Below are positions 605-22,218 of a stretch of DNA of 23,991 nucleotides, piece by piece. Numbering within the stretch: the stretch's first letter is position 1; the number at the start of each line of letters is the position of its first letter. Source of the stretch: DATKZS01 sp035527835 [NCBI: bacterium] (GTDB taxonomy: Bacteria > RBG-13-61-14). The notes under the pieces are model-generated. The model saw nothing but the letters and a program-made list of their open reading frames with translations. It ran no database searches and was not told the DNA's origin. The stretch lies in assembly GCA_035527835.1 (NCBI GenBank), contig DATKZS010000174.1, forward strand, positions 1 to 23,991. The letters run 5' to 3'. Made by a program: the position numbers and the translations under genes.

Positions 605-1747
605 CTACTTCACGATCGTGGTCTCATACACGCCCTTGGCCGTGAAGGTGTCGTCAATGCTCTGGTCCGGCATGGTCAGGCGCCACTGGACCACCGCGTT
701 CTGCCGGATGAACACCGGCGCCGTCACGAACTTCTCCGCCACGGGACGGACGAAGGCAGGGACCTCGTCCATGGCGTCAACCGCGCCGATGAACTTCACT
801 CCCTTGATCTCGCCCGTGAGCTTCACTCCCGGCTGGTCAATCTTGACCGTGACCCTGGTCGGATACTTGTAGCCGCGCCTGGGCTCCACCTTAAAATCGA
901 ACATCTGCCGCTCCCACTTGTCGGTGGCGTAGAGTATCTCGTGGTCCTTCATAATCAGGATCCAGGTGCTGCGCTCGCGGCCGAATTTTTCCGGCGCGAT
1001 ATAATCGAGGAAGTTGATGGAGTAATCGTCGTTGAAGGAGCGGAGCGCCATGAGCTCATCGCACTGGGTGGTGGGGAACACGGTCTGGGAGTTGTGGTCG
1101 GAGTATCCGAAGCCTTTCACCTTGCGGGTCTTGCCGTCAATGGTCACGGTCCCGTCCAGGTCGGCCCACGGGATCATCACGATCAGGTCGTACCAGTCGC
1201 CGTCGGGCGCCCCGTAATGCACCGGCCCTTCCCCCGGCCTCCATCCCGGCGTGCGGCAGTGGAAGTGCAGGTCCGTCATCATCTGGGGCTGTCCGTCCTC
1301 CGCCGGGAAGTCCTGGTGCACGTAAAAGTCCGGGTAAAACCCCTTCCAGTAGTGCGGGCCCATCTTCATCTCCGGCGGATCGCCGCTATAGGACGTCTCG
1401 TCGGCGTCGGCCAGGCCCTTGCGCAGATACAGATGGTCGCCCTTGTCGTTGAACGCGAAGTAAAGGCCGCGCGTCTCCATTACGTAGTACTTCCAGTAGG
1501 TGAATTGGATCATGCCGCTGGAGTCGTCATCCAGGTAAAACATGAAGGTGTAGGTCCAGGAGAAGAAGCCGCTGTCGGGGGTCATGGGCTTGAGCTGTTG
1601 TTTGGTGATGCCCTGGTCCGCCCGCGTCCGGACCCCGCCCTTGAAGTTATACACCTGGCCCGCGGCCCACGCCGCCGCCGCGACGGCCAGTGCGGCGATG
1701 GCCAGTGCGGCGATGGCCAGCATCAATCCTCTCCTTGAGTACTTCAC
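605..1747 (-). CDS. Exported lipocalin-fold protein, CrtC/AttH (Svf1-like) type
   Basis: About 380 residues. I start it at GTG 1747-1745 because a strong AAGGAGGG ribosome site lies just upstream; the longer in-frame ATG at 1843 has no such site and would bury the signal peptide. The N-terminus (KYSRRG followed by a very Ala/Leu-rich helix ending near AWAAG) is a Sec signal or anchor. The body is rich in beta strands and aromatic residues, and around residues 212-219 has GFGYSDHN, which resembles the GYxDHNWG signature of the hydroxyneurosporene hydratase (CrtC)/AttH/Svf1 lipocalin superfamily; the usual W-G is replaced by S-Q. Family members bind or hydrate hydrophobic lipids or carotenoids, but no carotenoid genes are nearby, so the substrate is unknown. 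It probably acts in the periplasm. Confidence is good for fold, low for activity. Confidence 0.65.
   Translation of the reverse strand: MKYSRRGLMLAIAALAIAALAVAAAAWAAGQVYNFKGGVRTRADQGITKQQLKPMTPDSGFFSWTYTFMFYLDDDSSGMIQFTYWKYYVMETRGLYFAFNDKGDHLYLRKGLADADETSYSGDPPEMKMGPHYWKGFYPDFYVHQDFPAEDGQPQMMTDLHFHCRTPGWRPGEGPVHYGAPDGDWYDLIVMIPWADLDGTVTIDGKTRKVKGFGYSDHNSQTVFPTTQCDELMALRSFNDDYSINFLDYIAPEKFGRERSTWILIMKDHEILYATDKWERQMFDFKVEPRRGYKYPTRVTVKIDQPGVKLTGEIKGVKFIGAVDAMDEVPAFVRPVAEKFVTAPVFIRQNAVVQWRLTMPDQSIDDTFTAKGVYETTIVK
1685..1720 (-). repeat. 15-bp tandem repeat inside the signal peptide
   Basis: The unit GGCCAGTGCGGCGAT occurs at 1685-1699 and 1700-1714 and partly at 1715-1720. It encodes repeated LAIAA in the hydrophobic core of the lipocalin signal peptide. 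Because the unit is a multiple of three, copy-number change would lengthen or shorten the hydrophobic helix without a frameshift. Confidence 0.8.
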
Positions 1748-1844
1748 TTCAGCCCTCCTTGCCGTGAGCAACCGATCAATAATATCGGCGCCGCCGGTCC
1801 CGCCCGGCGCCCGCGTCCGTTCGAGGCGAATATCATAACACATC

Positions 1845-6914: not shown

Positions 6915-7039
6915 TCAGGGGAAGGCGCCGGGCATTTCGCGGGTCCATGCCCCCGGCTTGCGTCGGCACCCCGGTTCGGGGTATCATGGATATTATGGAA
7001 AGCATAATGAGGACCAACCATTTGCCAAGGGAGCGGGCC

Positions 7040-7981
7040 ATGAAGCATTTTTTCTTGCGGGCGGCGGTGCTGGCGCAGATCATCGCGCTTTGCCTGGTGG
7101 CGGCGTCATGCTGGAAGGGAGAGCAGGGCGCGGCGGAGAACAAGCTGCCGGAGGTGTCCTCCGTCAAATTGACGCCGGCCTCCATCCAGCCGGGGGACTC
7201 GGTGTATGCTTCGGTGCAGGCCCGGGACATGGAGGGAGACCAGCTCACCTACGAGTATCAATGGATCGTCAACGGCAAGCCGGCGGAAGGCGCCAGGGAC
7301 AAGATGTTTTCCACGGACGGTCTGGCGCCGGGGGACCAGATTTTCGTGAAGGCCAGGGCCGTGGAAACCTCGAGCGGGCGAGCCGGAAAATGGAAGGAAT
7401 CCAAGAAGATCAGCCTGGGCGAGTTTCCCCCCTTGCGGATCCAGGGCGTGGTCCTGGAGCCCGAGAGTATCAAGGCCACCGGGCCGGTGGAGGCCGTCAT
7501 TGATTACGGGGACCTTGACCCCAATGACGTGGACACCGTCTATTACCGCTGGAACGTGAACGGGACCGACCTCCTGGGGGAGGAAAACCACGCGCCGTCG
7601 CTGTCGCCGGGCCAGTTCTCCCGGGGCGACAGGATCATGGTCACGGTGTGCCTGGACGGATTATTCAAGTCCCCCAATACCTGGAGCTCTTCCGTGTATA
7701 CCGTGGCCGACACCGCGCCCGAGTTCACCTCATCCCCCGACATCGGCTATGATCAAGACAAGATCGTGATCTACTTCGAGGTCGAGGACCCGGACGGAGA
7801 CTCGATCACCTACTCGATCAGCGGCGCTCCCCCCGGATCCTATCTGGACAAGAAAGACGGGACCAAGTTGATCATCAGCGCCAACGCCCCGCCGGGGACC
7901 TACAATATCATGATCGGGGCCTCGGACAACTATGGAGGCTCGACCGGAAAACCCATCGTCGTAACCATCCCTGAAAGATAG
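7040..7981 (+). CDS. Lipoprotein with tandem Ig-like/cadherin-like domains
   Basis: 313 residues from ATG 7040, which has AGGGAG eight bases upstream; the in-frame ATG at 6947 lacks one. The N-terminus KHFFLRAAV...LCLVAASC is a type II signal peptide with the lipidated Cys predicted at residue 24 (AAS before C, a slightly unusual lipobox). The mature part looks like three beta-sandwich repeats: about 36-127 and 128-222 each contain a Y-x-W-x-V-N-G core (EYQWIVNGK and YYRWNVNGT), and 223-313 resembles a He-PIG/cadherin-type module (FEVEDPDGDSITYSI...APPGTYNIMIGASD). Such proteins sit on the cell surface or periplasmic face and bind partners or polysaccharide. It precedes the pilus operon but 600 bp of AT-rich DNA intervene, so cotranscription is unlikely. 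Confidence 0.7.
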   Translation: MKHFFLRAAVLAQIIALCLVAASCWKGEQGAAENKLPEVSSVKLTPASIQPGDSVYASVQARDMEGDQLTYEYQWIVNGKPAEGARDKMFSTDGLAPGDQIFVKARAVETSSGRAGKWKESKKISLGEFPPLRIQGVVLEPESIKATGPVEAVIDYGDLDPNDVDTVYYRWNVNGTDLLGEENHAPSLSPGQFSRGDRIMVTVCLDGLFKSPNTWSSSVYTVADTAPEFTSSPDIGYDQDKIVIYFEVEDPDGDSITYSISGAPPGSYLDKKDGTKLIISANAPPGTYNIMIGASDNYGGSTGKPIVVTIPER

Positions 7982-8892: not shown

Positions 8893-9960
8893 ATGGCGCT
8901 ACGAGGAAAGAAAGGGTTGATCGGCCTGGATATCGGGTCCAGCTCCATCAAGGTTGCCGAGCTCAAGGAGACCAAGAAGGGGTATTTGCTGGAGAATTTC
9001 GGGATGGTCCCGCTGCCCCCCGAGGCCATCGTGGACGGGGCCCTGATGAATTCCCCGGCCATTGTGGAGGCCATCCAGTCCCTGATCGGCGAGCGCAAGA
9101 TCAAGACCAAGGACGTGGCCATCAGCGTCTCCGGGGCCTCGGTCATGATCCGGAAGATCAGCCTGCCGGTGATGACGGAGGAGGAGTTGGACGATCAGAT
9201 CCAGTGGGAGGCCGAGCAGTACATCCCCTTTAACCTCTCGGACGTGAACCTGGCCTACGAGGTCCTGAACCGCGGCAACGACGAAGGCAACATGGACCTT
9301 CTGCTGGTCGCGGCCAAAAAGGACATGATCAACGATTACGTGGCCGTTATCACCGAAGCCGGGCTCAATCCGGTGATCGTTGACCTTGACGCCTTTTCGG
9401 TGCTGAACGCGTACGAGATCAACTATCAGATCATGGAGAACGAGGTCCTGGCCATCGTGAACATGGGGGCCTCGATCATCAACATGGTGATCACGAAGGG
9501 CGGGAAGTACCTGTTTTCCCGGGACGTTACGGTCGGCGGCAACCTCTACACCGAGGAGATCATGAAGGAGTTGTCGGTGAGCTGGGAGGAGGCCGAGCTC
9601 TTGAAACTTGGCGGCGCGGCCACGGGCGAGACCGAGGCGGTGATGCGCCAGGAGGTTGAGGCGGTGATCCGGCGGGTTTCGGACCAGATTGCGTCGGAGA
9701 TCGCGAAATCATTGGACTTTTACCAGGCGACGGCGGCGGAGGAACAGATTTCCAAGGTCTGGCTTGCCGGCGGGGCCTGCGGCATCTCGGGAATGGCGGA
9801 AGCTATCCAGCAGAAGCAGAACGTTCCCGTGGAGATAATGGACCCATTCCGGAACCTGGAGCGGAACCCCAAGCTGTTTGATCCGGCCTATCTGGAGCAG
9901 GTTGGGGCGCGGGCGTCAGTGAGCATAGGACTTGCGCTGAGGAGGGTGGGGGACCGATGA
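8893..9960 (+). CDS. pilM: Type IV pilus actin-like ATPase PilM
   Basis: 355 residues, the usual PilM length. Actin/FtsA-fold nucleotide motifs are visible: phosphate-1 GLDIGSSSIK (11-20), phosphate-2 IVNMGASIINM (188-198) and the adenosine motif LAGGACGIS (291-299). The 1C-like subdomain (about 75-165) contains VMTEEELDDQIQWEAEQYIP, a hallmark of PilM. The protein forms a cytoplasmic ring that binds the N-terminal tail of PilN and links the pilus motor to the envelope complex. The start has an AAGGAGGAG ribosome site. The stop overlaps the pilN start as ATGA (9957-9960), indicating translational coupling. Confidence 0.95.
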   Translation: MALRGKKGLIGLDIGSSSIKVAELKETKKGYLLENFGMVPLPPEAIVDGALMNSPAIVEAIQSLIGERKIKTKDVAISVSGASVMIRKISLPVMTEEELDDQIQWEAEQYIPFNLSDVNLAYEVLNRGNDEGNMDLLLVAAKKDMINDYVAVITEAGLNPVIVDLDAFSVLNAYEINYQIMENEVLAIVNMGASIINMVITKGGKYLFSRDVTVGGNLYTEEIMKELSVSWEEAELLKLGGAATGETEAVMRQEVEAVIRRVSDQIASEIAKSLDFYQATAAEEQISKVWLAGGACGISGMAEAIQQKQNVPVEIMDPFRNLERNPKLFDPAYLEQVGARASVSIGLALRRVGDR

Positions 9961-10880
9961 TAAAGATTAATTTACTTCCGGTCAAAGCGGCCAAGAAAAA
10001 AGAGAAGGTGATGACCCAGGTTTACATGGGTATCCTGGTGGTCATCTTCGCCGTGGTGGGCCTGGGCTACTTCTGGTTCACGCAGAAATCCAAGATCAAC
10101 GTGGTGCGGACGGAGATCCAGAAGACCAACGAGCAGAAAGCAAAGCTCGCGGACGCCAAGAAGAAGTTCGAGGAACTGCAGAAGAAAGAGAATCTGTTAA
10201 ACCAGCAGCTCGAGGCCATCACCAAGCTCGACCGCGGGCGCGACTGGTTCATCCGGGTCCTGGACAAGATCACCGAGAGCATTCCGCACAAGCAGGTGTG
10301 GGTGAACTCGGCCAAGTTCGGCGGGACCAAGTCGCGGGGCGCGCGCGGGGGCGGCGGGGGCGCAAACAACATCACGTTGCGCGGGTCCTCGTATGACCGC
10401 GACGCGGTGGCCCTGTTCATGGGCAACCTCTCCATCATCCCCTGCGACGACGCGCTGCCGGACGAGGAGAAGGCCCCGATCTGCCAGGAGCGCAATACCC
10501 GCTGCCGCCGCTGGAACGAGGCCACCAAGAACTGGGAGTGGGACTTCGAGGGCTGCCGCCGCTTTTATAAGGAGACTTGCGAGCAGTCCAAGACCTGCGC
10601 GGATGACGTGCGCAGCTGCAACAACGATGTCCAGACGGCCTGCACGGGACCGGAAGCCAAGGGGGGCAAGACCTGCCAGGACGCCAAGGACAAATGCGCC
10701 GCGCTCAAGAAGCAATGCGATGGGGCGAAGGCGGGCTGCGGCAAGCTGCACGAGGAGGAATACGTGGCCTACGACAGCGTGCGGCTCAACTATATCCGGA
10801 CGGGCAAGGAGAAGCCCGGCAGCGTGCCGGTTTATGACTTTGAAATCGTTTGCTCAGCCACGGAACCGTCGGGCGAGTGA
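9957..10880 (+). CDS. pilN: Type IV pilus alignment protein PilN with a cysteine-rich insertion
   Basis: 307 residues against about 180-210 for typical PilN. The PilM-binding INLLP motif is at 4-8, a single membrane helix at about 22-41, and a coiled coil at about 45-95. The periplasmic ferredoxin-like domain starts around 96 (DWFIRVLDKITESIPHKQVW), is interrupted by a Gly-rich loop (ARGGGGGANN, 129-138), and its first half ends at about 161 with FMGNLSII. The fold seems to resume at about 267 (EEYVAYDSVRLNYI...VPVYDFEIVC). Between these, residues 163-261 hold 12 Cys at 163, 176, 183, 200, 208, 214, 221, 229, 240, 247, 254 and 261, mostly 6-8 apart, with a 13th at 299. This looks like a disulfide-bonded helical module displayed in the periplasm. 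PilN normally pairs with PilO, so the insertion could add a new contact or a redox-sensitive lock (inference). Confidence 0.92.
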   Translation: MIKINLLPVKAAKKKEKVMTQVYMGILVVIFAVVGLGYFWFTQKSKINVVRTEIQKTNEQKAKLADAKKKFEELQKKENLLNQQLEAITKLDRGRDWFIRVLDKITESIPHKQVWVNSAKFGGTKSRGARGGGGGANNITLRGSSYDRDAVALFMGNLSIIPCDDALPDEEKAPICQERNTRCRRWNEATKNWEWDFEGCRRFYKETCEQSKTCADDVRSCNNDVQTACTGPEAKGGKTCQDAKDKCAALKKQCDGAKAGCGKLHEEEYVAYDSVRLNYIRTGKEKPGSVPVYDFEIVCSATEPSGE

Positions 10881-10918: not shown

Positions 10919-11488
10919 ATGGCTCTTAACGCGGAATTCCTGGTCAAGATGCCGGTGAGTCAGAAAATCCTGGTTCTGGCGGCGGCGGTGGCGGTCCTGG
11001 TACTGGGGTACTGGTTCCTGATCGGCAGCTCGCTCAAGAGCGATTTGGAGAGGATGCAGGCGGAACTCTCCCAGGCCAAGTCCGACCTGGCCAAACTGGA
11101 GACGGTGCAGAAGGACAAGGAAAAGCTTGACCGGGAACTCAAGGAAAAGGAAAGGAAGCTGGAGAAGGCCAAGGAAAAGCTCCCCACCGAGACGGAGATG
11201 GAGAGACTGCTCCTCACCATCAACGAGCTGGGACAGCAGAACGGCATCAGGTTCTCCAATTTCAAGCCGCTGGCCGAACGCAAGGAGGGAAATCTCTACA
11301 TCGAGGTCCCCATCGAGCTCAAGTTCACCGGCGGATACCTCTACGTCATGAACTTCTTCGCCAAGGTGGCGGCGCTGCCCCGGATCGTCAATTTCAACGG
11401 GGTCTCGATTACCGGGGGCGGCAAGGGGAAAACCAGTGAGATCGATGTCAGTTGCACGGCCAGCACCTATAAATTTATCGGGAAATAA
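10919..11488 (+). CDS. pilO: Type IV pilus alignment protein PilO
   Basis: 189 residues, typical length. A short cytoplasmic tail is followed by one membrane helix (about 16-35, KILVLAAAVAVLVLGYWF), a highly charged coiled coil (about 37-85, many EKLDRELKEKERKLEKAKE-like heptads) and a ferredoxin-like periplasmic domain (about 88-189) with the usual TEMERLLLTINELGQQNGI and FTGGYLYVMNFFAKVAALPR blocks. It dimerises with PilN. It starts 38 bp after pilN behind a GGGGGAGGGG ribosome site. In contrast to its PilN partner it has just one Cys (CTAS near the C-terminus). Confidence 0.93.
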   Translation: MALNAEFLVKMPVSQKILVLAAAVAVLVLGYWFLIGSSLKSDLERMQAELSQAKSDLAKLETVQKDKEKLDRELKEKERKLEKAKEKLPTETEMERLLLTINELGQQNGIRFSNFKPLAERKEGNLYIEVPIELKFTGGYLYVMNFFAKVAALPRIVNFNGVSITGGGKGKTSEIDVSCTASTYKFIGK

Positions 11489-11499
11489 GGGGACTTGCC

Positions 11500-12024
11500 A
11501 TGAGAAGCCATAAGCTGACAAATGGTTTCGCGCTGGGGTGTTTGCTCCTCGGCGTGATCTGGCTCGCGGCCTGCGGCGGCCAAGCGCCGGCTCCGGGACC
11601 CAGCGTGCCCAAGGAAAATGTGGCCCCCACGGCCGCCAAGGAGGAGCCCGCGCCATCGGAGAGCAAGGCCAAGGAAACCGTGCAAAAGGAGTGGCATTAC
11701 GACGCCACCGACAAATGGGACCCGTTTGCCGTTCCTGAGCCGCCGGTGATCACGGAGCCGTCGTCGGAGCGCTACGATCTGGACCAGATGACGCTGCTCG
11801 GCATCATCCGGGGTTCGAACATGGACGCGGCTTACGTCCGCATGCCGGACGGCACGGACAAGATCGTCCGGGTCGGCGACATCCTGGGCAAGCACGGCGG
11901 CGAGATCAAGGAGATCGGCAAGGACTCGGTGACGGTTGAAGAGCGTTACATGGACCCCAAACGTCCCAACGATACTTTTATCATTGAAAAGGAACTGAAG
12001 CTGGCGGGAAGGCCAGGCGGATGA
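11500..12024 (+). CDS. pilP: Type IV pilus lipoprotein PilP
   Basis: 174 residues. The signal peptide ends in the lipobox LAAC with predicted lipidated Cys25. A Pro/Ala/Glu-rich flexible linker follows (about 28-60), then WDPFAVPEPP, the conserved DPF stretch that contacts PilN/PilO, and a C-terminal beta domain (about 83-174, DQMTLLGIIRGSNMDAAYVR ... VRVGDILGKHGGEI) that binds the N0 domain of the PilQ secretin. It starts 11 bp after pilO. Length and order in the cluster are standard. Confidence 0.92.
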   Translation: MRSHKLTNGFALGCLLLGVIWLAACGGQAPAPGPSVPKENVAPTAAKEEPAPSESKAKETVQKEWHYDATDKWDPFAVPEPPVITEPSSERYDLDQMTLLGIIRGSNMDAAYVRMPDGTDKIVRVGDILGKHGGEIKEIGKDSVTVEERYMDPKRPNDTFIIEKELKLAGRPGG

Positions 12025-12081: not shown

Positions 12082-15000
12082 ATGGGCAAGCGGAAATACA
12101 AAAGCGGGAGCTTGAAAATCCTCGGATCGGCATGGTTCGTGGTACTGGCTTTGCTGGCCGCGTGCGCGGCGCAGAAGGGGCCGGAGACCAAGAGCCCGGC
12201 GGACGCCAAACCCGAGGTCTCGGCCGTCCGGGTCGAGAAGGCGGATGCCAATGACCGCGTCGTGATCGAGACCAATCCGCCATCCATGGGGTACAGCGTG
12301 TACAAATGGATGGACCCCGTGAGGATCGTGGTTGACTTCGCCGACGCCGTGGCCGCCCGAGAGCCCTCGACCATCTCCGTGGCCGACGGGCTGATCAAGG
12401 GGGTGGACGTCAAGGGCATCAAACCCGATGGTCAGGACGCCACCTCCCTGGTCCGCGTCATCATCAACCTGGAAAAGAACGCGGAGTACGAGGTCAACCG
12501 GGAAGACGGCAAGCTCGTGGTCTCCCTGGCCAAGTCCGCGTCCGCGGACGCAGGCTCCGCGGAGCAGGCCGGCCTGGCCGTCATGCAGGGTGACTCCGAA
12601 TCCGGCGCCGCCAACGCCCAGGATTGGGCCTGGGCCGGTCCGGCCGGAGCGGCCGCCGCTGACACGGGCGCCGCCGCCAAGAAACTCGTCAGCGTGTCCG
12701 TGAGCGAGGACGGGGACATGACCAGGGTAAGCCTGCTCGCCGACGGCGCCGTGGGCGATTACAGCGCGTTCACCCTGGAAAACCCGGACCGCCTGGTCAT
12801 TGACATGTGGGGAGTGAAGAACCCTTCCAAGATCGGGGCCAAGAGCATCAATCAGCAGGGCATTCTCCGGGTCCGGGCCGGGGAGCACGAGGACAAGCTC
12901 CGGCTTGTGTTCGACGCCAACGGCGACTTGCCCCATTATCGCTTTGACAAGGACGGCAACCGCCTGGTCGTGACCTTCAGCCGGACCATGGACGTATCGG
13001 TCGCCCCCGGCTCCGTCGAGGCATCCGCCACCGAGACCGCCAGCAGCGCCACCTCCGACAAGGACTGGCCGGTCATGGACCTGGCCCAGAACGAGTGGAG
13101 CGGACCGCAGCCCAGCTCGACCGCCAGCGAATGGAGCACGCCCTCCGCTCCGGCCCCGGCGCCGGTCGGCGCGCCGCCCGCCGTTTCGCCCACCCTCGAC
13201 TGGGGGCCGCAGGTGACCCTGCCGCCCAACGAGCGTGAGGCCGGGATCGCCAATATTGATTACGTTAAATTCGATTTCTCCAACAGCGCCTCGTCCATCG
13301 TGATCCACGCGGACCGGCCGATCCGCCGCGAGTCCTGGCGCAGGCAAGACAATCCCGACGAGAAGATCGTCAGCTTCTTCATCGGGAACGCCCAAGTCGC
13401 CGCGGACCAGCAGCGTTCGTATGACACCACCGAGTTCCAGAGCCCGATCGAGCTCTTCTCCGTGTTCCAGCGGCCGACCCAGCAAAACGAGGTCGCCATT
13501 ATCGTGGTGATGCGCAACTGGGCGGCCAGCAAGTGGAACCAGTACGATGAGAAGCTGGTGATCCAGTTCGAGAATTATCCGGGGAGCCTGGGTCTCGGCG
13601 GCGCGGCCACCACCGGCATGTTCGGGCCCATGGGCGAAGAGGTAACCGGCGGCACGGGCGCGCCCGGCGCCATGGCCCCCGGGGTGTCCGGCGTTCCCTC
13701 CGCCACCACCCCCTATACCGGGGCGTCCGTCAGCCTGGACTTCAAGAACATGGACATCCTCGATGCCCTGCGCACCATCGCCGAAGTCAGCAACATGAAC
13801 ATCGTGGTGGCCGACAACGTCAGGGGCAAGATCACCATCAAGCTCGACAGCGTGCCCTGGGACCAGGCCCTCGACCTCATCCTCGACACCAAGGGACTGG
13901 GAAAGGTCGAGCAGGGAAACATCATCCGGATCGCCCCCCAAAAGGACCTCCAAAAAGAGAAGGCCGACCGCCTGGCCGAGCTCGAGGCCCAGCGCAAGTA
14001 CGAGGAGCTGACCACCAAGATCATCCCCGTCAACTACCTCAAGGCCCAGGACCTGAGTAGGGTGGTGCGGCCCATCCTCACTCCCGGCCGCGGCAAGGTG
14101 GACGCGGACAAGCGCACCAACTCGATCATCATCCGGGACATCCCGGCGGCCGTGGAAGAGGCCTACAAGATGATCTCGACCCTCGACAAGCCCACCAAGC
14201 AGGTGCTGATCGAGGCCAGGATCGTCGAGGCGACCGTCGGCGTGACCCGCGAGATCGGAGTGCAGTGGGGCACCAATTATAACGTCGGACCCGCCACCGG
14301 AAACCCGACCGGCCTCGATTTCCCCGGCACCATTCAGCTCGGCGGCGCCGCCCTCGGAGGCACCTCCGGGTCGGGCGCCGTCACGGGACTGAGCCCCGGC
14401 GGAGGGGCATTGGGCATCAGCGTGGGATCCCTGTCCAACGCCGTATCGCTGGACGTGGCCCTCAGGACCCTCGAGGCCCAGGAAAGGATCAAGATCATTT
14501 CCAGCCCGCGCGTCCTGACGCTCACCGATGAGCGGGCCATGATCGAACAAGGCGTGAGCATACCTTATCCTCCGCCCTCCATCGTCGGCGGCGGGGCGGT
14601 GGGATGGACCTTTGTCGAGGCCTCCCTCCAGCTCGAGGTCACGCCCCACGTGGCCGCGGACAACAGCATCATCATGGATATCAAGTGCGCCAATAACGAG
14701 CCGGTCAGCATCGCCGGCTCCAGCCAGCCGGGCATCAGCAAGAAGGAGGCCCAGACCACCATCATGTTGAAAGATGGCGAAACCGCCGTGATCGGTGGTA
14801 TCTTCAAGATCAGGAAGAGCCAGCCCCGGACTCTGATCCCGTTTCTGGGCAGCCTGCCCGTGATCGGGACATTGTTCAGCGATAGGATTGACGAGTCGAG
14901 AAACGAGGAGCTGATCATCTTCCTCACCCCCCAGATCATCGAGGCCGGACGCGGCGTCGGAGACCAGGGGATGGGCGGCGGGTTCAGCGGACTCAGGTAG
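12082..15000 (+). CDS. pilQ: Type IV pilus secretin PilQ
   Basis: 972 residues, on the long side. A type II signal peptide with lipobox LLAAC (Cys28) suggests a lipoprotein secretin. Two AMIN peptidoglycan-binding domains follow (about 46-149 and 203-300), then a Ser/Pro/Ala linker and a third beta-rich AMIN-like block (about 391-499). The secretin part has the STN/N0 domain (about 549-620, SVSLDFKNMDILDALRTIAE), an N1/NolW-like domain (about 645-703, LSRVVRPILTPGRGKVDADK) and the C-terminal beta-barrel domain (about 706-953) with LIEARIVEATVGVTREIGVQ and the signature VIGGIFKIRKSQPRTLIPFL. It forms the outer-membrane gate for the pilus. It lies 57 bp after pilP with its own GGGAGG site. The antisense open frame across the entire gene is a GC-driven shadow. 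Confidence 0.95.
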   Translation: MGKRKYKSGSLKILGSAWFVVLALLAACAAQKGPETKSPADAKPEVSAVRVEKADANDRVVIETNPPSMGYSVYKWMDPVRIVVDFADAVAAREPSTISVADGLIKGVDVKGIKPDGQDATSLVRVIINLEKNAEYEVNREDGKLVVSLAKSASADAGSAEQAGLAVMQGDSESGAANAQDWAWAGPAGAAAADTGAAAKKLVSVSVSEDGDMTRVSLLADGAVGDYSAFTLENPDRLVIDMWGVKNPSKIGAKSINQQGILRVRAGEHEDKLRLVFDANGDLPHYRFDKDGNRLVVTFSRTMDVSVAPGSVEASATETASSATSDKDWPVMDLAQNEWSGPQPSSTASEWSTPSAPAPAPVGAPPAVSPTLDWGPQVTLPPNEREAGIANIDYVKFDFSNSASSIVIHADRPIRRESWRRQDNPDEKIVSFFIGNAQVAADQQRSYDTTEFQSPIELFSVFQRPTQQNEVAIIVVMRNWAASKWNQYDEKLVIQFENYPGSLGLGGAATTGMFGPMGEEVTGGTGAPGAMAPGVSGVPSATTPYTGASVSLDFKNMDILDALRTIAEVSNMNIVVADNVRGKITIKLDSVPWDQALDLILDTKGLGKVEQGNIIRIAPQKDLQKEKADRLAELEAQRKYEELTTKIIPVNYLKAQDLSRVVRPILTPGRGKVDADKRTNSIIIRDIPAAVEEAYKMISTLDKPTKQVLIEARIVEATVGVTREIGVQWGTNYNVGPATGNPTGLDFPGTIQLGGAALGGTSGSGAVTGLSPGGGALGISVGSLSNAVSLDVALRTLEAQERIKIISSPRVLTLTDERAMIEQGVSIPYPPPSIVGGGAVGWTFVEASLQLEVTPHVAADNSIIMDIKCANNEPVSIAGSSQPGISKKEAQTTIMLKDGETAVIGGIFKIRKSQPRTLIPFLGSLPVIGTLFSDRIDESRNEELIIFLTPQIIEAGRGVGDQGMGGGFSGLR

Positions 15001-15026: not shown

Positions 15027-15623
15027 ATGAAACGTGCAATTTGTGCTATTATTGCGTTGACGGCTGCGGCGCTGACGCTGATGCTGCTTGGGTGCGCGAA
15101 GGACTCCGGACCGGGCAGGGACAATCAGTACGATACCGGATCTTTGCTCCAGGTGACCAGTCTGACATCAGGTGATGGCGGCGCCAGCAGCACTTGGACG
15201 ATTGATGTGTTCCAGCAGCCCTGGTGCGGCGATTCGACCGGCGACCCGGAAGATTTTTACGACGCCACTTTTAACGTTACCTTTGAGAACCTTGCGCCAG
15301 ACCACCTTAGTATATCGCAAACCGGTATTCTGGTCGAATCCTACAGCATTGCATATTCAACTATCGAACCAACCCAGCCGGCCCTGAAGCCCAAAACCAA
15401 CATCGCCATCAACCAGTATCTCGAGCCCGGCACCCCCTTAAATGTGAACGGATTGTTGCTGATGACCATCGCAACCAAGTTTGAATTCATGGCCTTTGGA
15501 AACCCGTTCGCTTTCCCCGTTTATAAATGCACGATCACGTTTCATGGCGAGAACGATTACGGCTATGAGGTCACCGCCACGGCGAGCGTTTTCGTGGTCT
15601 TGGGCGCCTATGATAATTGCTGA
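15027..15623 (+). CDS. Lipoprotein of unknown function, last gene of the pil operon
   Basis: 198 residues. The signal peptide ends in LLGC with lipidated Cys23 predicted. The mature protein is beta-rich (Ig-like guess) with SISQTGILVESYSIAYSTIE and an F-x-x-x-F-x-N-P-F-A-F segment; two Cys near the middle (WCGDS, YKCTI) and a terminal Cys could form disulfides. I recognise no family. It begins 26 bp after pilQ behind a CAGGGAGGG site, so it belongs to the same transcript. A role as an outer-membrane partner or pilotin-like helper of PilQ is inferred from position only. Confidence 0.65.
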   Translation: MKRAICAIIALTAAALTLMLLGCAKDSGPGRDNQYDTGSLLQVTSLTSGDGGASSTWTIDVFQQPWCGDSTGDPEDFYDATFNVTFENLAPDHLSISQTGILVESYSIAYSTIEPTQPALKPKTNIAINQYLEPGTPLNVNGLLLMTIATKFEFMAFGNPFAFPVYKCTITFHGENDYGYEVTATASVFVVLGAYDNC

Positions 15624-16033: not shown

Positions 16034-17836
16034 GTGGCCACCACCCCGGCACAAACCAATCAGGACCCCAAGCCTGAGATCGAAAAGTACAGAAAGGCCC
16101 TGGCCGCGGACCCGGACTCCAGGCTCTTCGCCGCCCTGGCCGATTCCCTGCGCCGCTCCGGAGACATCAAGGCCGCTATCGCCGTGGCCGAGCAAGGCGT
16201 CGGCAAACACCCCAAATACTTGAGCGGTATCGTGGTCCTGGCCCAGGCCTATTTCGCCGACCAGAGGTACCCCGACGCCCTCGAGCTCTTCAAGAAAGTG
16301 GTCAAGCTCAACCCCGAAAACCTCACGGCCCACCGCGCCATGGCCGAGATTTACGACCGCATCGGAGACCATGAGCAGGCCCTCAAGGCCTACCGCGCCA
16401 TCACCATTCTCGACCATACCGATAAAAGGGCCATGGAGAGGCTCCAGATCCTCGAAGCCACCATGCCCAGGAAGGCCCCGGCCGGGACCCCCGCGGAACA
16501 GGCCCCCGCCGCGGGCCGGGAACAAGAACCGGCGGCAAAGCCAGCAATGGCCGATCAAGCACCGGCCCCCGAAGAAGCGCCGGCCCCGACACCGGAAGAA
16601 AACCAGGCCCCGGCCCCGGAGGAGGCCCCGGCCGAATCCATAGGCCAGGCCGCGCCGCCCGGCGGCCAGGCCCAAGCGCCGGCCCCTGCCGCGGCCGAGC
16701 CCTTTCCGAAATTGCCGGAAAACCTGGCCGGGCCGCAAGCGGAACCGCCGGAACCCGAGACCGGCGATCAGGAAATAACATCTCCTGGAACGCCCCCGCC
16801 GGAAGCCGCCATCTCCGCGCCGCCCGCTCCGCCGCCTGACGATGACCAGACCCTCGAAATCCCGCCGCCGTCAAAGCCCGCGGCGCCGCCGGCCGCACCC
16901 GGCGAAGACTCCATGACCGACGAGCTGCCGCGTCCGGAACCGCCGGGGCGGGAAGCCGATTCGCAAGGACCGGCGGAGCCGTCCGTCGAGGCGGCTCCCG
17001 CGGCGCAGGAAAAGGAGCTGAAGGCCGCCGCCGAAAAGAAAAAGGCCCTGTCCGAGGAAGAGAAGCTCGACCTCTTCTTCTCCGGCGAGAACCTGTCCCG
17101 TCTCGGCATTGCCGTGGAGGCCGAGGGATTCGAGGTCAAGGGAGCGAGGGACGCGCTGTCCAGCCCCCGGGACTCGGCCAAGACCCCGGCCGCGGGCCAG
17201 GACGTGAAGCCGGGCCGGTCCGCCCCGTCCCTCGCCGACGTCAAGATCACCAGGAGCGCCATGGCCAAGGTCTTCTGGAACCAGGGCTTCAGGCAAAAGG
17301 CCCTCGCGGTCCTCGCCGGCGAAACCTGTGAAAAACCGGATGACCCCGAGCTGCGGGCCGAGTTCGAGGCCGCTTGTCAGGCCATGAACAAGGACCCGGA
17401 TCAAATCATCGCCGAGGCGGCGCCTAGAGCCGATGCCCGGCCAAAGGAAGAGAAGAAGGAACAGCCTGCGGAGGAGCCGGAGCAGCCGGAGCCGGAGCCC
17501 GAGGAGCCGGAGCCCGGGGAGCCGGAGGACGACCAGACCACCGAGGTCCAGCCGCCGGCCCGGGACGTGGAATGGTTCCAGCCGCCCGTCTTGCACCCGC
17601 CCGCCAAGGCGGAGCCGGTCACTTCCCCCAAGGCGGAGCCGGTCGCTTCCCCCAAGGCGGAGCCGGTCACTTCCGAAGCGGCGGCGCCTGCAAGCAAAAC
17701 GGATGGCGGCGACGGCGGACCCCGCCAAGACGCGGCGGGACCCGCAAATACGGCCTCGGCGCCCGGCCCGGCCCGGGTCCAGGCCCTGCGCAAGTATCTG
17801 GATAAAATCAGGGGAGGCAAGGAGAACAAGCCATGA
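16034..17836 (+). CDS. TPR protein with long Pro/Ala/Glu-rich disordered regions
   Basis: 600 residues from GTG 16034, which has CGGAGAG six bases upstream; no earlier start fits. Residues about 13-145 form three to four TPR repeats (RLFAALADSLRRSGDIKAAI, VVLAQAYFADQRYPDALELF, AMAEIYDRIGDHEQALKAYR). About 150-335 and 470-580 are low-complexity Pro/Ala/Glu-rich and probably disordered. Between them lie a short conserved-looking segment (SEEEKLDLFFSGENLSRLGI) and another TPR-like helix pair (AKVFWNQGFRQKALAVLAGE). The C-terminus ends in a predicted helix, VQALRKYLDKIRGG. No signal peptide or membrane segment is seen, so it is cytoplasmic. The stop overlaps the start of the Roadblock gene (ATGA at 17833-17836), suggesting the two products work as partners, with the C-terminal helix as a possible contact (inference). 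Confidence 0.75.
   Translation: MATTPAQTNQDPKPEIEKYRKALAADPDSRLFAALADSLRRSGDIKAAIAVAEQGVGKHPKYLSGIVVLAQAYFADQRYPDALELFKKVVKLNPENLTAHRAMAEIYDRIGDHEQALKAYRAITILDHTDKRAMERLQILEATMPRKAPAGTPAEQAPAAGREQEPAAKPAMADQAPAPEEAPAPTPEENQAPAPEEAPAESIGQAAPPGGQAQAPAPAAAEPFPKLPENLAGPQAEPPEPETGDQEITSPGTPPPEAAISAPPAPPPDDDQTLEIPPPSKPAAPPAAPGEDSMTDELPRPEPPGREADSQGPAEPSVEAAPAAQEKELKAAAEKKKALSEEEKLDLFFSGENLSRLGIAVEAEGFEVKGARDALSSPRDSAKTPAAGQDVKPGRSAPSLADVKITRSAMAKVFWNQGFRQKALAVLAGETCEKPDDPELRAEFEAACQAMNKDPDQIIAEAAPRADARPKEEKKEQPAEEPEQPEPEPEEPEPGEPEDDQTTEVQPPARDVEWFQPPVLHPPAKAEPVTSPKAEPVASPKAEPVTSEAAAPASKTDGGDGGPRQDAAGPANTASAPGPARVQALRKYLDKIRGGKENKP
17605..17674 (+). repeat. 24-bp coding tandem repeat in the TPR gene
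   Basis: Three units starting CAAGGCGGAGCCGGTCACTT (17605, 17629, 17653) encode KAEPVTSP, KAEPVASP and KAEPVTSE. The second differs by one base. The near identity suggests recent slippage expansion in the disordered linker. Confidence 0.85.
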
Positions 17837-18192
17837 TATTCGACGAGGTCGTGAAAAAAGCGGTGGAGGAGACACACGGAGCGCTGGCGGCGGTGATTAT
17901 GGCCAAGGACGGCATTACCTTGAGCTCGTACATCAAGCCCGGCACCATCATTGACCTGGAGACCCTGGGCATCGAGTACGCCAACCTGCTCGCGACCACC
18001 TCCCGCGCCTCCGAGGCCATGGACGCGGGACCGCTCACCGAGCTCCAGCTAACCACCGACAAGTACCTCACCCTGCTCCGCTCCTTGAACCCGGAGTACT
18101 TCATCGCCCTCATCCTCTCGCCCTCCGGCAACCTGGGAAAGGGACGATTCATCCTCCGCGTCAGCGCCCCCGCCATCTTAAGGGAGTTCTAG
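17833..18192 (+). CDS. Roadblock/LC7 domain protein (MglB-like)
   Basis: 119 residues, a single Roadblock/LC7 domain: an N-terminal helix ([20 protein letters not shown]), a beta hairpin ([12 protein letters not shown]), a central helix with [17 protein letters not shown], then three strands ([40 protein letters not shown]). Bacterial members such as MglB dimerise and act on small Ras-like GTPases such as MglA in polarity and gliding or twitching motility. No MglA-like GTPase is in this window. Its overlap with the TPR gene and closeness to the pil operon make a link to pilus polarity reasonable but unproven. Confidence 0.8.
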
Positions 18193-20702: not shown

Positions 20703-20846
20703 TTAACCCAGGGCGGGAGCCATGGGAACCGGACATCTCATATCGTCTTAAGCGCTGAAAGTGCGGCCCAACACGGTCTTAGGCCGCCCCTGCAGGGCTA
20801 AGCGGGTTACGCAGTCTCTTTCCCAAGGCTCCCGCCTTGGGTTAAC
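20703..20846. repeat. Composite palindrome with 26-bp arms
   Basis: Arm 20703-20728 (TTAACCCAGGGCGGGAGCC...) and arm 20821-20846 (...GGCTCCCGCCTTGGGTTAA) match at 24 of 26 positions. The 92-bp interior holds further small stems such as GCCGCCCCTGCAGGGC. Flanks contain AGCGCTGCAAGCGC and GGCCGCCCCGGCGGGGC hairpins. Confidence 0.75.
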
Positions 20847-20911
20847 CAAGGCCGCCCCGGCGGGGCTTCAATCAATGAAATTCCAATAATGGATAAGAAA
20901 ACAATACCTTA

Positions 20912-21357: not shown

Positions 21358-22218
21358 ATGTCTGATGAAGATCAAACAAGTAATGTAAAAGAAAATAATA
21401 AAAAAAATGAGAGAGATGATCAAAATGAGAATTATGAAAATCATTTCCGAAGTCTAAAAGAAGCTAAATCAAATGGCAATAAAAATGATTCAGCTTTTGA
21501 AATAATGGAAACTAAGGATAAAGAAGCAATTGAAGATGAATATAATCTCAGATGGTTATTACGTCATATATTTGACATACTTGCTTTTGTCATAGCTATA
21601 ATTGCATTTATATTTTCTTTCTTTACATGGTACATTAATTATATAGAAGATAAGCCGAAATTAGATTGTAAATATGAAGGCGGTTATTTTTTCGTAATTG
21701 ATGAACAATCTAATAAATCTTTACCAACTACATATGATATGATCGCTATATTTGAGATTACTATAACAAATTTGTCAGCTAGACCAGATTATATTACAGG
21801 CTTGGATCATATTGTTTATGATGGAAAATGGGGCGAAATGATATTTTTACCTGTAAATAATGCAGATCTCCAGAATTTAGATAATATATTTGATGTAGCA
21901 AATTATTTTCTAACAAAACGTAAAATCAATATTGAGCCCAAGCTATCCATTATTACTAGAAGATATTCTACTTATATAAACTTAAATAAAAAGATAATGG
22001 ACGATCCAACTTATTATGAGCCATACAATTCTCACAATGGCTATTTCATAATTAAGTTTACTAAAGGAATTAAAAAAATAGATGGACCAATTCGAGTAAC
22101 TATTAGAAATACTCGTAATAATACATATAGCGTGGTTTGTGATAATATTATAGAAGTTCCGAAACTATCAAATGGTGATACAACAAATAATTATAATTCA
22201 AATGCGAGGGGACCGTAA
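21358..22218 (+). CDS. AT-rich single-pass membrane protein, unknown function
   Basis: 286 residues, start ATG 21358 with a clear GGAAGGGGAAG ribosome site. Residues 1-65 are hydrophilic and charged (Asn/Lys/Glu-rich, likely disordered and cytoplasmic). One membrane helix spans about 71-93 (IFDILAFVIAIIAFIFSFFT). The remainder (about 98-270) looks like an extracytoplasmic beta-sandwich, with FEITITNLSARPDYITGLDH and a late GPIRVTIRNTRNNTYSVVCD strand pair. I recognise no named family. Codons are overwhelmingly A/T-ending, in sharp contrast to the GC-rich genes around it, so it was probably acquired from a low-GC source recently. Orphan, on its own; repeats lie on both sides. A role in defence or phage interaction is possible but has no direct evidence. 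Confidence 0.75.
   Translation: MSDEDQTSNVKENNKKNERDDQNENYENHFRSLKEAKSNGNKNDSAFEIMETKDKEAIEDEYNLRWLLRHIFDILAFVIAIIAFIFSFFTWYINYIEDKPKLDCKYEGGYFFVIDEQSNKSLPTTYDMIAIFEITITNLSARPDYITGLDHIVYDGKWGEMIFLPVNNADLQNLDNIFDVANYFLTKRKINIEPKLSIITRRYSTYINLNKKIMDDPTYYEPYNSHNGYFIIKFTKGIKKIDGPIRVTIRNTRNNTYSVVCDNIIEVPKLSNGDTTNNYNSNARGP

What the first reader, a model, noticed from the sequence alone, without database searches (positions are those of the whole stretch)
10443..10741. PilN carries a 100-residue periplasmic insertion with 12 near-heptad cysteines
Seen: PilN is 307 residues with Cys at 163, 176, 183, 200, 208, 214, 221, 229, 240, 247, 254 and 261; the last four are exactly seven apart and most others 6-8 apart. 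The insert lies between two parts of the PilN ferredoxin-like domain. Known: PilN is usually about 190 residues, Cys-poor, and pairs with PilO. Inference: a disulfide-stapled helical hairpin in the alignment complex, possibly a docking site or redox-sensitive control of the pilus. PilO and PilP show no matching Cys enrichment, so the partner would be another protein or PilN itself.
Basis: partly seen in the sequence, partly recalled or inferred. Interest (0 to 1): 0.8.

Follow-up and report, generated by a model that had tools for sequence, protein, structure and literature searches.

The report
Pilus protein with cysteine-laddered helical insert
In one uncultured bacterium, a core part of the machine that builds type IV pili carries an extra, roughly 100-residue segment with twelve regularly spaced cysteines that probably folds into a rigid helical arm held by disulfide bonds; no relative examined so far has it, and its job is unknown.

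Summary
PilN (9957-10880, 307 aa), in a pilMNOPQ operon, has 12 Cys at the stated positions (a 13th, Cys299, is outside the insert). The segment is real coding sequence (GC3 0.89 in frame) and lies between helix 2 and strand 3 of the ferredoxin-like domain: 8-55 residues in 74 homologues, 116 here. Fold prediction with homologues and of the insert alone gives a two-helix antiparallel hairpin (about 199-230, 239-261) in which Cys can face each other as rungs. The three genomes held from the nearest phylum have VKOR and DsbA domains in one frame. So a disulfide-stapled hairpin is a reasonable fold model; bonds are unmeasured.

Not supported: conservation and redox switching. No PilN examined (81 genes; 64 further loci; a few truncated or repeated) has more than 3 Cys, including the three nearest relatives. 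The insert matched nothing in Pfam, NCBIfam, PDB sequences, plasmids or 593 genomes. It looks like a lineage-specific orphan in a loop where other PilNs carry unrelated Cys-free inserts; most likely a rigid strut or docking arm, partner unknown.

The parts
9957..10880 (+). pilN, 307 aa, with the Cys-rich insert
   Evidence: ORF; sits between pilM and pilO; residues 1-159 are 35-38% identical to PilN of the three nearest genomes
9963..10433 (+). ordinary PilN part 1: N-terminal I-N-L-L motif, one long helix (membrane segment plus coiled coil), first half of the ferredoxin-like domain (residues 3-159)
   Evidence: invariant I4 N5 L6 L7; helix 7-94, strands 114-121 and 138-145, helix 148-159; Pfam PilN 100-159
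10434..10760 (+). Cys-rich insert in the alpha2-beta3 loop (residues 160-268; 12 Cys, all TGC)
   Evidence: no match found in Pfam, NCBIfam, PDB sequences, plasmids, 593 genomes
10551..10646 (+). predicted hairpin helix A (residues 199-230) with Cys200, 208, 214, 221, 229; its base (201-210) is of low confidence
   Evidence: AlphaFold2 with homologues; insert alone gives 197-230
10671..10739 (+). predicted hairpin helix B (residues 239-261) with Cys240, 247, 254, 261 exactly seven apart
   Evidence: insert alone gives 238-266
10761..10877 (+). ordinary PilN part 2: last two strands of the ferredoxin-like domain (residues 269-307), with Cys299
   Evidence: strands 271-282 and 293-302; PilO/GspL-like fold over about 95-302
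8893..9960 (+). pilM, 355 aa (overlaps pilN start)
   Evidence: Pfam PilM_2 E=3.4e-74; 74% identical to the Deltaproteobacteria bacterium RBG_13_61_14 protein
10919..11488 (+). pilO, 189 aa, 1 Cys
   Evidence: Pfam PilO E=3.6e-32; Cys count
11500..12024 (+). pilP, 174 aa, probable lipoprotein
   Evidence: Pfam PilP E=1.8e-10; lipobox read from the sequence
12082..15000 (+). pilQ secretin, 972 aa, with AMIN domains
   Evidence: Pfam Secretin E=1.5e-39, AMIN E=6e-24 with 3 stretches

Best explanation
A working PilN carries, in the loop between helix 2 and strand 3 of its periplasmic ferredoxin-like domain, an added helical hairpin that is locked by disulfides after export. Helix A (about 199-230) and helix B (about 239-261) run antiparallel; Cys229-240, 221-247, 214-254 and 208-261 face each other as rungs, and 163, 176, 183 and 200 probably make two more bonds near the base (163-176 and 183-200; an alternative set is 183-200, 176-208 and 163-261). 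The segment is highly charged with few hydrophobic residues, so the disulfides stand in for a hydrophobic core. The stiff arm, roughly 3.5-5 nm by helix length, stands on each PilN in the PilN/PilO ring next to the PilN/PilO dimer contact. It most likely acts as a structural strut or docking surface (for PilO, PilP's N-terminal linker, the coiled-coil stalk or a lineage-specific partner). Shown: position, coding status, Cys regularity. Predicted: hairpin. Inferred: disulfides, their pairing, and the strut or docking role.
For: Cys positions and regular spacing beyond chance. Two fold predictions agree on the hairpin: with 38 PilN sequences (helices 199-230 and 239-261; ten-residue pLDDT means 81, 89, 75, 91, 78 for 211-260) and from the insert alone (197-230, 238-266; 84, 92, 70, 91, 82 for 210-259). 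Rungs summing to 468-469 hold four Cys-Cys pairs, are centred in the predicted turn (230-239), and of 26 registers 468 has the most non-Cys hydrophobic pairs (V218-L250, V225-A243, Y204-L264; 3 against 0-2). No CxxC or CxxxC, no Met, one His in the insert, so no usual metal, haem or thioredoxin-type motif. All 3 genomes held from the nearest phylum have VKOR and DsbA domains in one frame. The core matches PilO (2rjz, Z 9.9, rmsd 2.9, 93 residues) and GspL folds around the insert. Published passages place the loop after helix 2 and the next strand at PilO/PilN and GspL/GspM dimer contacts (PMC5805733, PMC3815138).
Against: Disulfides were not measured; no coordinates were available, so sulphur distances are unchecked. 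The rung pattern is weak by itself: 2680 of 20,000 random placements and 192 of 840 orders of the same gaps also give four rungs, and another register, 461-462, gives four Cys-Cys pairs as well, with 2 and 1 hydrophobic pairs; it would be centred at the end of helix A rather than in the turn. Polar, charged segments are readily predicted as helices without being folded so; the base of helix A (201-210) has pLDDT 49 and overall pTM is 0.48. The first third of the insert differs between the models (weak strands 183-196 against a helix 169-190). No homologue of the insert was found, so no conservation supports a function. The window's own genome is not held, so its oxidation machinery is inferred from relatives with 65-74% PilM identity. 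PMC3815138 itself calls direct involvement of helix 2 in the GspM contact uncertain.
Confidence: 0.5

Rival explanations
1. Tolerated loop expansion: the alpha2-beta3 loop of PilN accepts extra sequence, and this lineage gained a Cys-rich, disulfide-folded filler with no specific partner or function.
For: The same loop holds Cys-free inserts in many Myxococcota PilN (for example L018, and an Ala/Pro-rich one in L002), 8-55 residues over 74 homologues. No conservation of this insert was found.
Against: Twelve evenly spaced Cys, lined up with predicted helices, are unlikely to arise and stay without selection; this is an argument, not a test.
Confidence: 0.28
2. Redox- or metal-responsive switch: the thiols are partly reduced or bind metal in the periplasm, and oxidation or metal loading changes PilN/PilO pairing.
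For: The insert sits beside the published PilO/PilN dimer contact elements, so a shape change there could matter; an odd total of 13 Cys leaves at least one unpaired within the chain.
Against: No CxxC or CxxxC, one His, no Met in the insert; VKOR-DsbA in relatives should keep such Cys oxidised. Cys299, the odd one, lies in the last strand, where 13 of 74 homologues also have a Cys within two alignment columns, so it looks independent of the insert.
Confidence: 0.11
3. Copper-storage-like thiol bundle: reduced Cys line a helical bundle and hold Cu(I).
For: Predicted helices with many Cys.
Against: Spacing is mostly 6-8 without CxxxC pairs; only two confident helices; no Pfam or NCBIfam match. 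That Csp proteins use four-helix bundles with closely spaced Cys is recalled, not from a call.
Confidence: 0.03
4. Assembly or sequencing artefact, for example a chimera joining a foreign Cys-rich fragment into pilN.
For: Seen in one record only; no genome is held for the window and no reads were available.
Against: The frame is open through both junctions, codon-position GC is unchanged across the insert, no tandem repeats, and the fold model resumes the domain after it.
Confidence: 0.05

Closest known systems
PilN of type IVa pili (Pfam PF05137), e.g. Thermus PilN 4bhq, and its paralogue PilO 2rjz
   Same: Operon place between pilM and pilO, N-terminal I-N-L-L motif, long N-terminal helix, ferredoxin-like periplasmic domain
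   Different: About 100 extra residues with 12 Cys in the alpha2-beta3 loop; Pfam score 21.3 is just under the 22.8 cut-off, with only the first part of the model aligned
Myxococcota PilN with inserts in the same loop
   Same: Same insertion point between helix 2 and strand 3 in the alignment
   Different: At most 55 residues in that stretch and 0-1 Cys; no evident sequence likeness
PilN of Deltaproteobacteria bacterium RBG_13_61_14 and two other genomes of its phylum (L001, L083, L084)
   Same: Nearest operons by PilM (74, 68, 65% identity); PilN residues 1-159 are 35-38% identical
   Different: Loop of 9-12 residues, no insert, no Cys after the start codon
Alpha-hairpins of periplasmic adaptor proteins (MexA)
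   Same: Two-helix antiparallel hairpin of like length on a periplasmic domain (MexA 6iol, Z 8.2, rmsd 1.6, 57 residues)
   Different: Generic shape (the tool warns that such Z values are common for helical models); MexA hairpins dock to a TolC-family channel (recalled); no sequence kinship was found
CHCH / twin CX9C helical hairpins
   Same: Antiparallel helices cross-linked by disulfides (recalled)
   Different: No Cys pair is 10 residues apart here; most spacings are 6-8, and up to six bonds are possible, not two

Membership tests
PilN, type IVa pilus alignment protein | Gene lies between pilM and pilO in a pilMNOPQ operon | tested here: met
   PilM_2, PilO, PilP and Secretin called on neighbouring ORFs
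PilN, type IVa pilus alignment protein | N-terminal PilM-binding motif (I-N-L-L-P) | tested here: met
   I4 N5 L6 L7 invariant and P8 nearly invariant over 38 sequences
PilN, type IVa pilus alignment protein | Membrane segment and coiled coil followed by a ferredoxin-like periplasmic domain | tested here: met
   Helix 7-94 and the core elements; PilO, GspL and PilN structures align around the insert
PilN, type IVa pilus alignment protein | Score above the Pfam PilN cut-off | tested here: inconclusive
   21.3 bits against 22.8, E=0.00028, only model 1-46 of 78 aligned, as expected if the insert interrupts it
PilN, type IVa pilus alignment protein | Binds PilO and PilM and is needed for piliation | not testable with these tools
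   Needs experiment
CHCH / twin CX9C | Two pairs of Cys each 10 residues apart | tested here: not met
   Successive gaps are 13,7,17,8,6,7,8,11,7,7,7
Copper storage (Csp) type | Closely spaced Cys (CxxxC) on helices facing one core | tested here: not met
   No CxxC or CxxxC in the insert; the defining motif is recalled
Periplasmic adaptor alpha-hairpin | Sequence kinship to adaptor proteins | tested here: inconclusive
   No Pfam or NCBIfam family listed at E up to 1 for the insert, which does not exclude remote kinship; shape match only

The most novel reading that the evidence does not exclude
A new type of disulfide-ladder helical hairpin (near-heptad Cys on both helices, up to six bonds, almost no hydrophobic core) has been added to the PilN ring, so that about six stiff arms per machine dock a lineage-specific partner or lock the PilN/PilO arrangement against pilus retraction force.
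Probability: 0.25. Interest if true: 0.7.

Novelty: new variant of a known kind. Interest (0 to 1): 0.45.

Why it matters
The PilMNOP alignment complex is usually treated as a conserved core. If this insert is a real structural module, core pilus parts can take on large disulfide-stabilised arms at the dimer-contact loop, and that loop is a natural site for lineage-specific control or docking. The Cys ladder would also be an unusual small fold whose pairing can be tested directly by mass spectrometry, and a possible scaffold for rigid periplasmic hairpins.

Tried and rejected
PilN-PilO inter-subunit disulfide through last-strand cysteines (PilN Cys299, PilO Cys179): no sign of it as a general feature; among 75 PilN/PilO pairs, the window included, 3 have both, 11 only PilN, 8 only PilO, 53 neither (Cys within two alignment columns). 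The window itself is one of the three with both, so it is not excluded there.

Repeat expansion at DNA level as origin: no tandem repeats found in 10400-10800.

Insert as a known domain: nothing listed in Pfam or NCBIfam at E up to 1, nothing in PDB sequences at E up to 10, no plasmid match at E up to 1, none in 395 + 5 + 193 genomes at E up to 0.001 (the tool warns that an empty answer without a positive control shows nothing). In the 3 genomes of the nearest phylum one E=0.055 match, in G002, runs through two stop codons and was dismissed as chance. Foldseek with the insert model: 195 matches at E up to 10, none at E up to 0.001. VIA on that model gives only common two-helix arrangements (best Z 8.8 at rmsd 7.9, then a run at 8.6 and below).

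Other Cys-rich PilN: 178 of 195, 261 of 395 and 88 of 282 genomes gave PilN matches (with a profile of the N-terminal part, the others with window PilN); the match lists are cut. I fetched 64 places, mostly with unusually long open frames; all 64 have at most 3 Cys, but L148 is cut before the loop and some repeat earlier loci. PilN matches that were not fetched were judged only by the open-frame lengths listed. Several long frames were upstream read-through, several were Ala/Pro-rich tails. My first ORF picker chose wrong frames in some GC-rich loci; its counts are superseded.

PilM relatives in viral contigs: none. Literature: in the held library no paper has PilN with 'Cys-rich' and 'insertion', PilN with 'ferredoxin-like', 'insertion' and 'loop', 'disulfide ladder' with 'helical hairpin', or all five terms. 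PMC5805733, PMC3815138 and PMC13039148 were seen as passages only; the other papers as listings.

Full report
What is there. The window holds pilM (8893-9960), pilN (9957-10880), pilO (10919-11488), pilP (11500-12024) and pilQ (12082-15000) in order on the + strand. The nearest named relative by PilM is Deltaproteobacteria bacterium RBG_13_61_14 (74% identity). Only three genomes of its phylum are held, and the window's own genome is not held.

The observation. PilN is 307 aa with Cys at 163, 176, 183, 200, 208, 214, 221, 229, 240, 247, 254, 261 and also 299. The 18 other window ORFs tabulated average 0.82% Cys; at that rate 12 Cys in 99 residues has P about 4.5e-11. In 200-261, 7 of 8 gaps are 6-8 residues, reached by 6 of 200,000 random placements. 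Both stretches were chosen after seeing the Cys. Codon-position GC in the insert (0.57/0.49/0.89) matches its neighbours, and no tandem repeats were found. So it reads as real coding sequence, not a frameshift.

Where the insert sits. Pfam PilN aligns only to 100-159, but the fold model has core elements on both sides (strands 114-121 and 138-145, helix 148-159, strands 271-282 and 293-302), and solved PilO and GspL domains align across about 95-302 (PilO 2rjz Z 9.9, rmsd 2.9, 93 residues; Thermus PilN 4bhq Z 7.1, rmsd 2.6, 77 residues). The insert therefore lies between helix 2 and strand 3. In 74 aligned homologues this stretch is 8-55 residues (median 47, weighted by the many Myxococcota rows) with 0 Cys (72) or 1 Cys (2); here it is 116 with 12. 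Many Myxococcota PilN carry their own Cys-free inserts at the same point. The site is thus a length-variable loop, and this insert is the longest and only Cys-rich one seen.

Published work adds meaning to the site: in Pseudomonas PilO the region between helix 2 and the next strand is called the most conserved motif and is said to take part in PilO homodimers and PilN/PilO heterodimers; in GspL/GspM the strand after helix 2 is at the dimer contact, while direct involvement of helix 2 stays uncertain there (PMC5805733 and PMC3815138, passages). A recent Thermus model, partly predicted, builds a ring of six PilN and six PilO (PMC13039148, passages). In a ferredoxin-like fold the C-terminal end of helix 2 is on the same side as the N-terminus of helix 1, which would put the arm on the membrane-facing side of the domain near the coiled-coil stalk; this is topology reasoning from recall, not computed.

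Fold. AlphaFold2 with 38 PilN sequences gives helices 199-230 and 239-261, with ten-residue pLDDT means 81, 89, 75, 91, 78 for 211-260 but 49 for 201-210, and pTM 0.48. Rungs 229-240, 221-247, 214-254 and 208-261 sum to 468-469. On their own such rungs are not rare for evenly spaced Cys (2680 of 20,000 random placements; 192 of 840 gap orders), and register 461-462 also gives four Cys-Cys pairs. Two things favour 468: it has the most hydrophobic pairs among 26 registers after leaving out Cys (V218-L250, V225-A243, Y204-L264; 3, against 2 at 461 and 1 at 462), and its centre falls in the predicted turn. The 109-residue insert is 11% Cys with 19 K+R and 22 D+E, one His, no Met, and no CxxC or CxxxC. 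The hairpin resembles many two-helix hairpins in the PDB (MexA 6iol Z 8.2, rmsd 1.6, 57 residues); this is shape only and common.

Oxidation. All three genomes held from the nearest phylum have a VKOR match and a DsbA match in one open frame (G001 C65, G002 C231, G003 C368; open frames 412, 428 and 411 aa), read here as a VKOR-DsbA fusion. Disulfides are therefore the expected state of such Cys, though the window's organism itself could not be checked.

Conservation. PilN was found in 82 loci (79 of the 80 brought in by PilM, L040 being the miss, plus L081, L083 and L084); L081 repeats L001, leaving 81 genes, none with more than 2 Cys counted. L019 and L031 are cut by contig ends before the loop, L076 near it. 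Another 64 PilN loci, chosen mainly for long frames from three phylum searches, have at most 3 Cys; L148 is cut before the loop and a few are the same genes as earlier loci. The insert itself was not found in Pfam, NCBIfam, PDB sequences, plasmids or 593 genomes, with the tool's warning that such an empty genome search has no positive control. Because PilN of those relatives is only 35-38% identical over residues 1-159, the absence of closer genomes limits this.

Reading. Most likely a disulfide-locked helical arm used as a strut or docking surface beside the PilN/PilO contact (0.5). Second, tolerated loop filler without specific function (0.28). Redox or metal switching (0.11), copper storage (0.03) and artefact (0.05) are less likely. 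It is a PilN by operon, motif and fold; the addition is a new variant of a known kind. Interest is moderate: unusual in a core pilus part and directly testable, but seen once and unconserved so far.

Noticed in passing
window 20822-20867 (+): Acido-Lenti-1 RNA (RF01687) at 41 bits, over its gathering score of 37.
   Followed up: no
window 21358-22218 (+): 286-aa ORF with a hydrophobic stretch and GC3 0.17 in a 59% GC window, possibly foreign DNA; no family match over a cut-off.
   Followed up: no
window 15027-15623 (+): 198-aa probable lipoprotein with 5 Cys directly after pilQ, GC3 0.65, no Pfam or NCBIfam match; a 45-residue stretch matches L001 just after its pilQ (42%). A possible pilus-linked partner.
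   Followed up: partly
window 17833-18192 (+): Roadblock/LC7-like protein (E=0.00021, 21.4 bits against a cut-off of 23) downstream of the pilus operon; such proteins can set cell polarity (role recalled).
   Followed up: no
L002, L018 and other Myxococcota PilN loci; L127, L130, L139: PilN carries Cys-free inserts in the same helix 2 to strand 3 loop; some other PilN have long Ala/Pro-rich C-terminal tails.
   Followed up: partly
G001 C65, G002 C231, G003 C368 (L115-L117): VKOR and DsbA domain matches in one open frame in all three genomes held from the nearest phylum.
   Followed up: partly
L001 pilP, within about 7262-7850: PilP of RBG_13_61_14 has a C-x6-C pair just before its folded domain that the window PilP lacks (the start of that ORF is uncertain).
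   Followed up: no
window 605-1843 (-): ORF with a Svf1-like lipocalin C-terminal domain (PF17187, E=1.5e-11).
   Followed up: no
window 6947-7981 (+): 344-aa ORF, probable lipoprotein, with weak Ig-like matches upstream of pilM; 27-30% identical to stretches upstream of pilM in L001 and L084.
   Followed up: no
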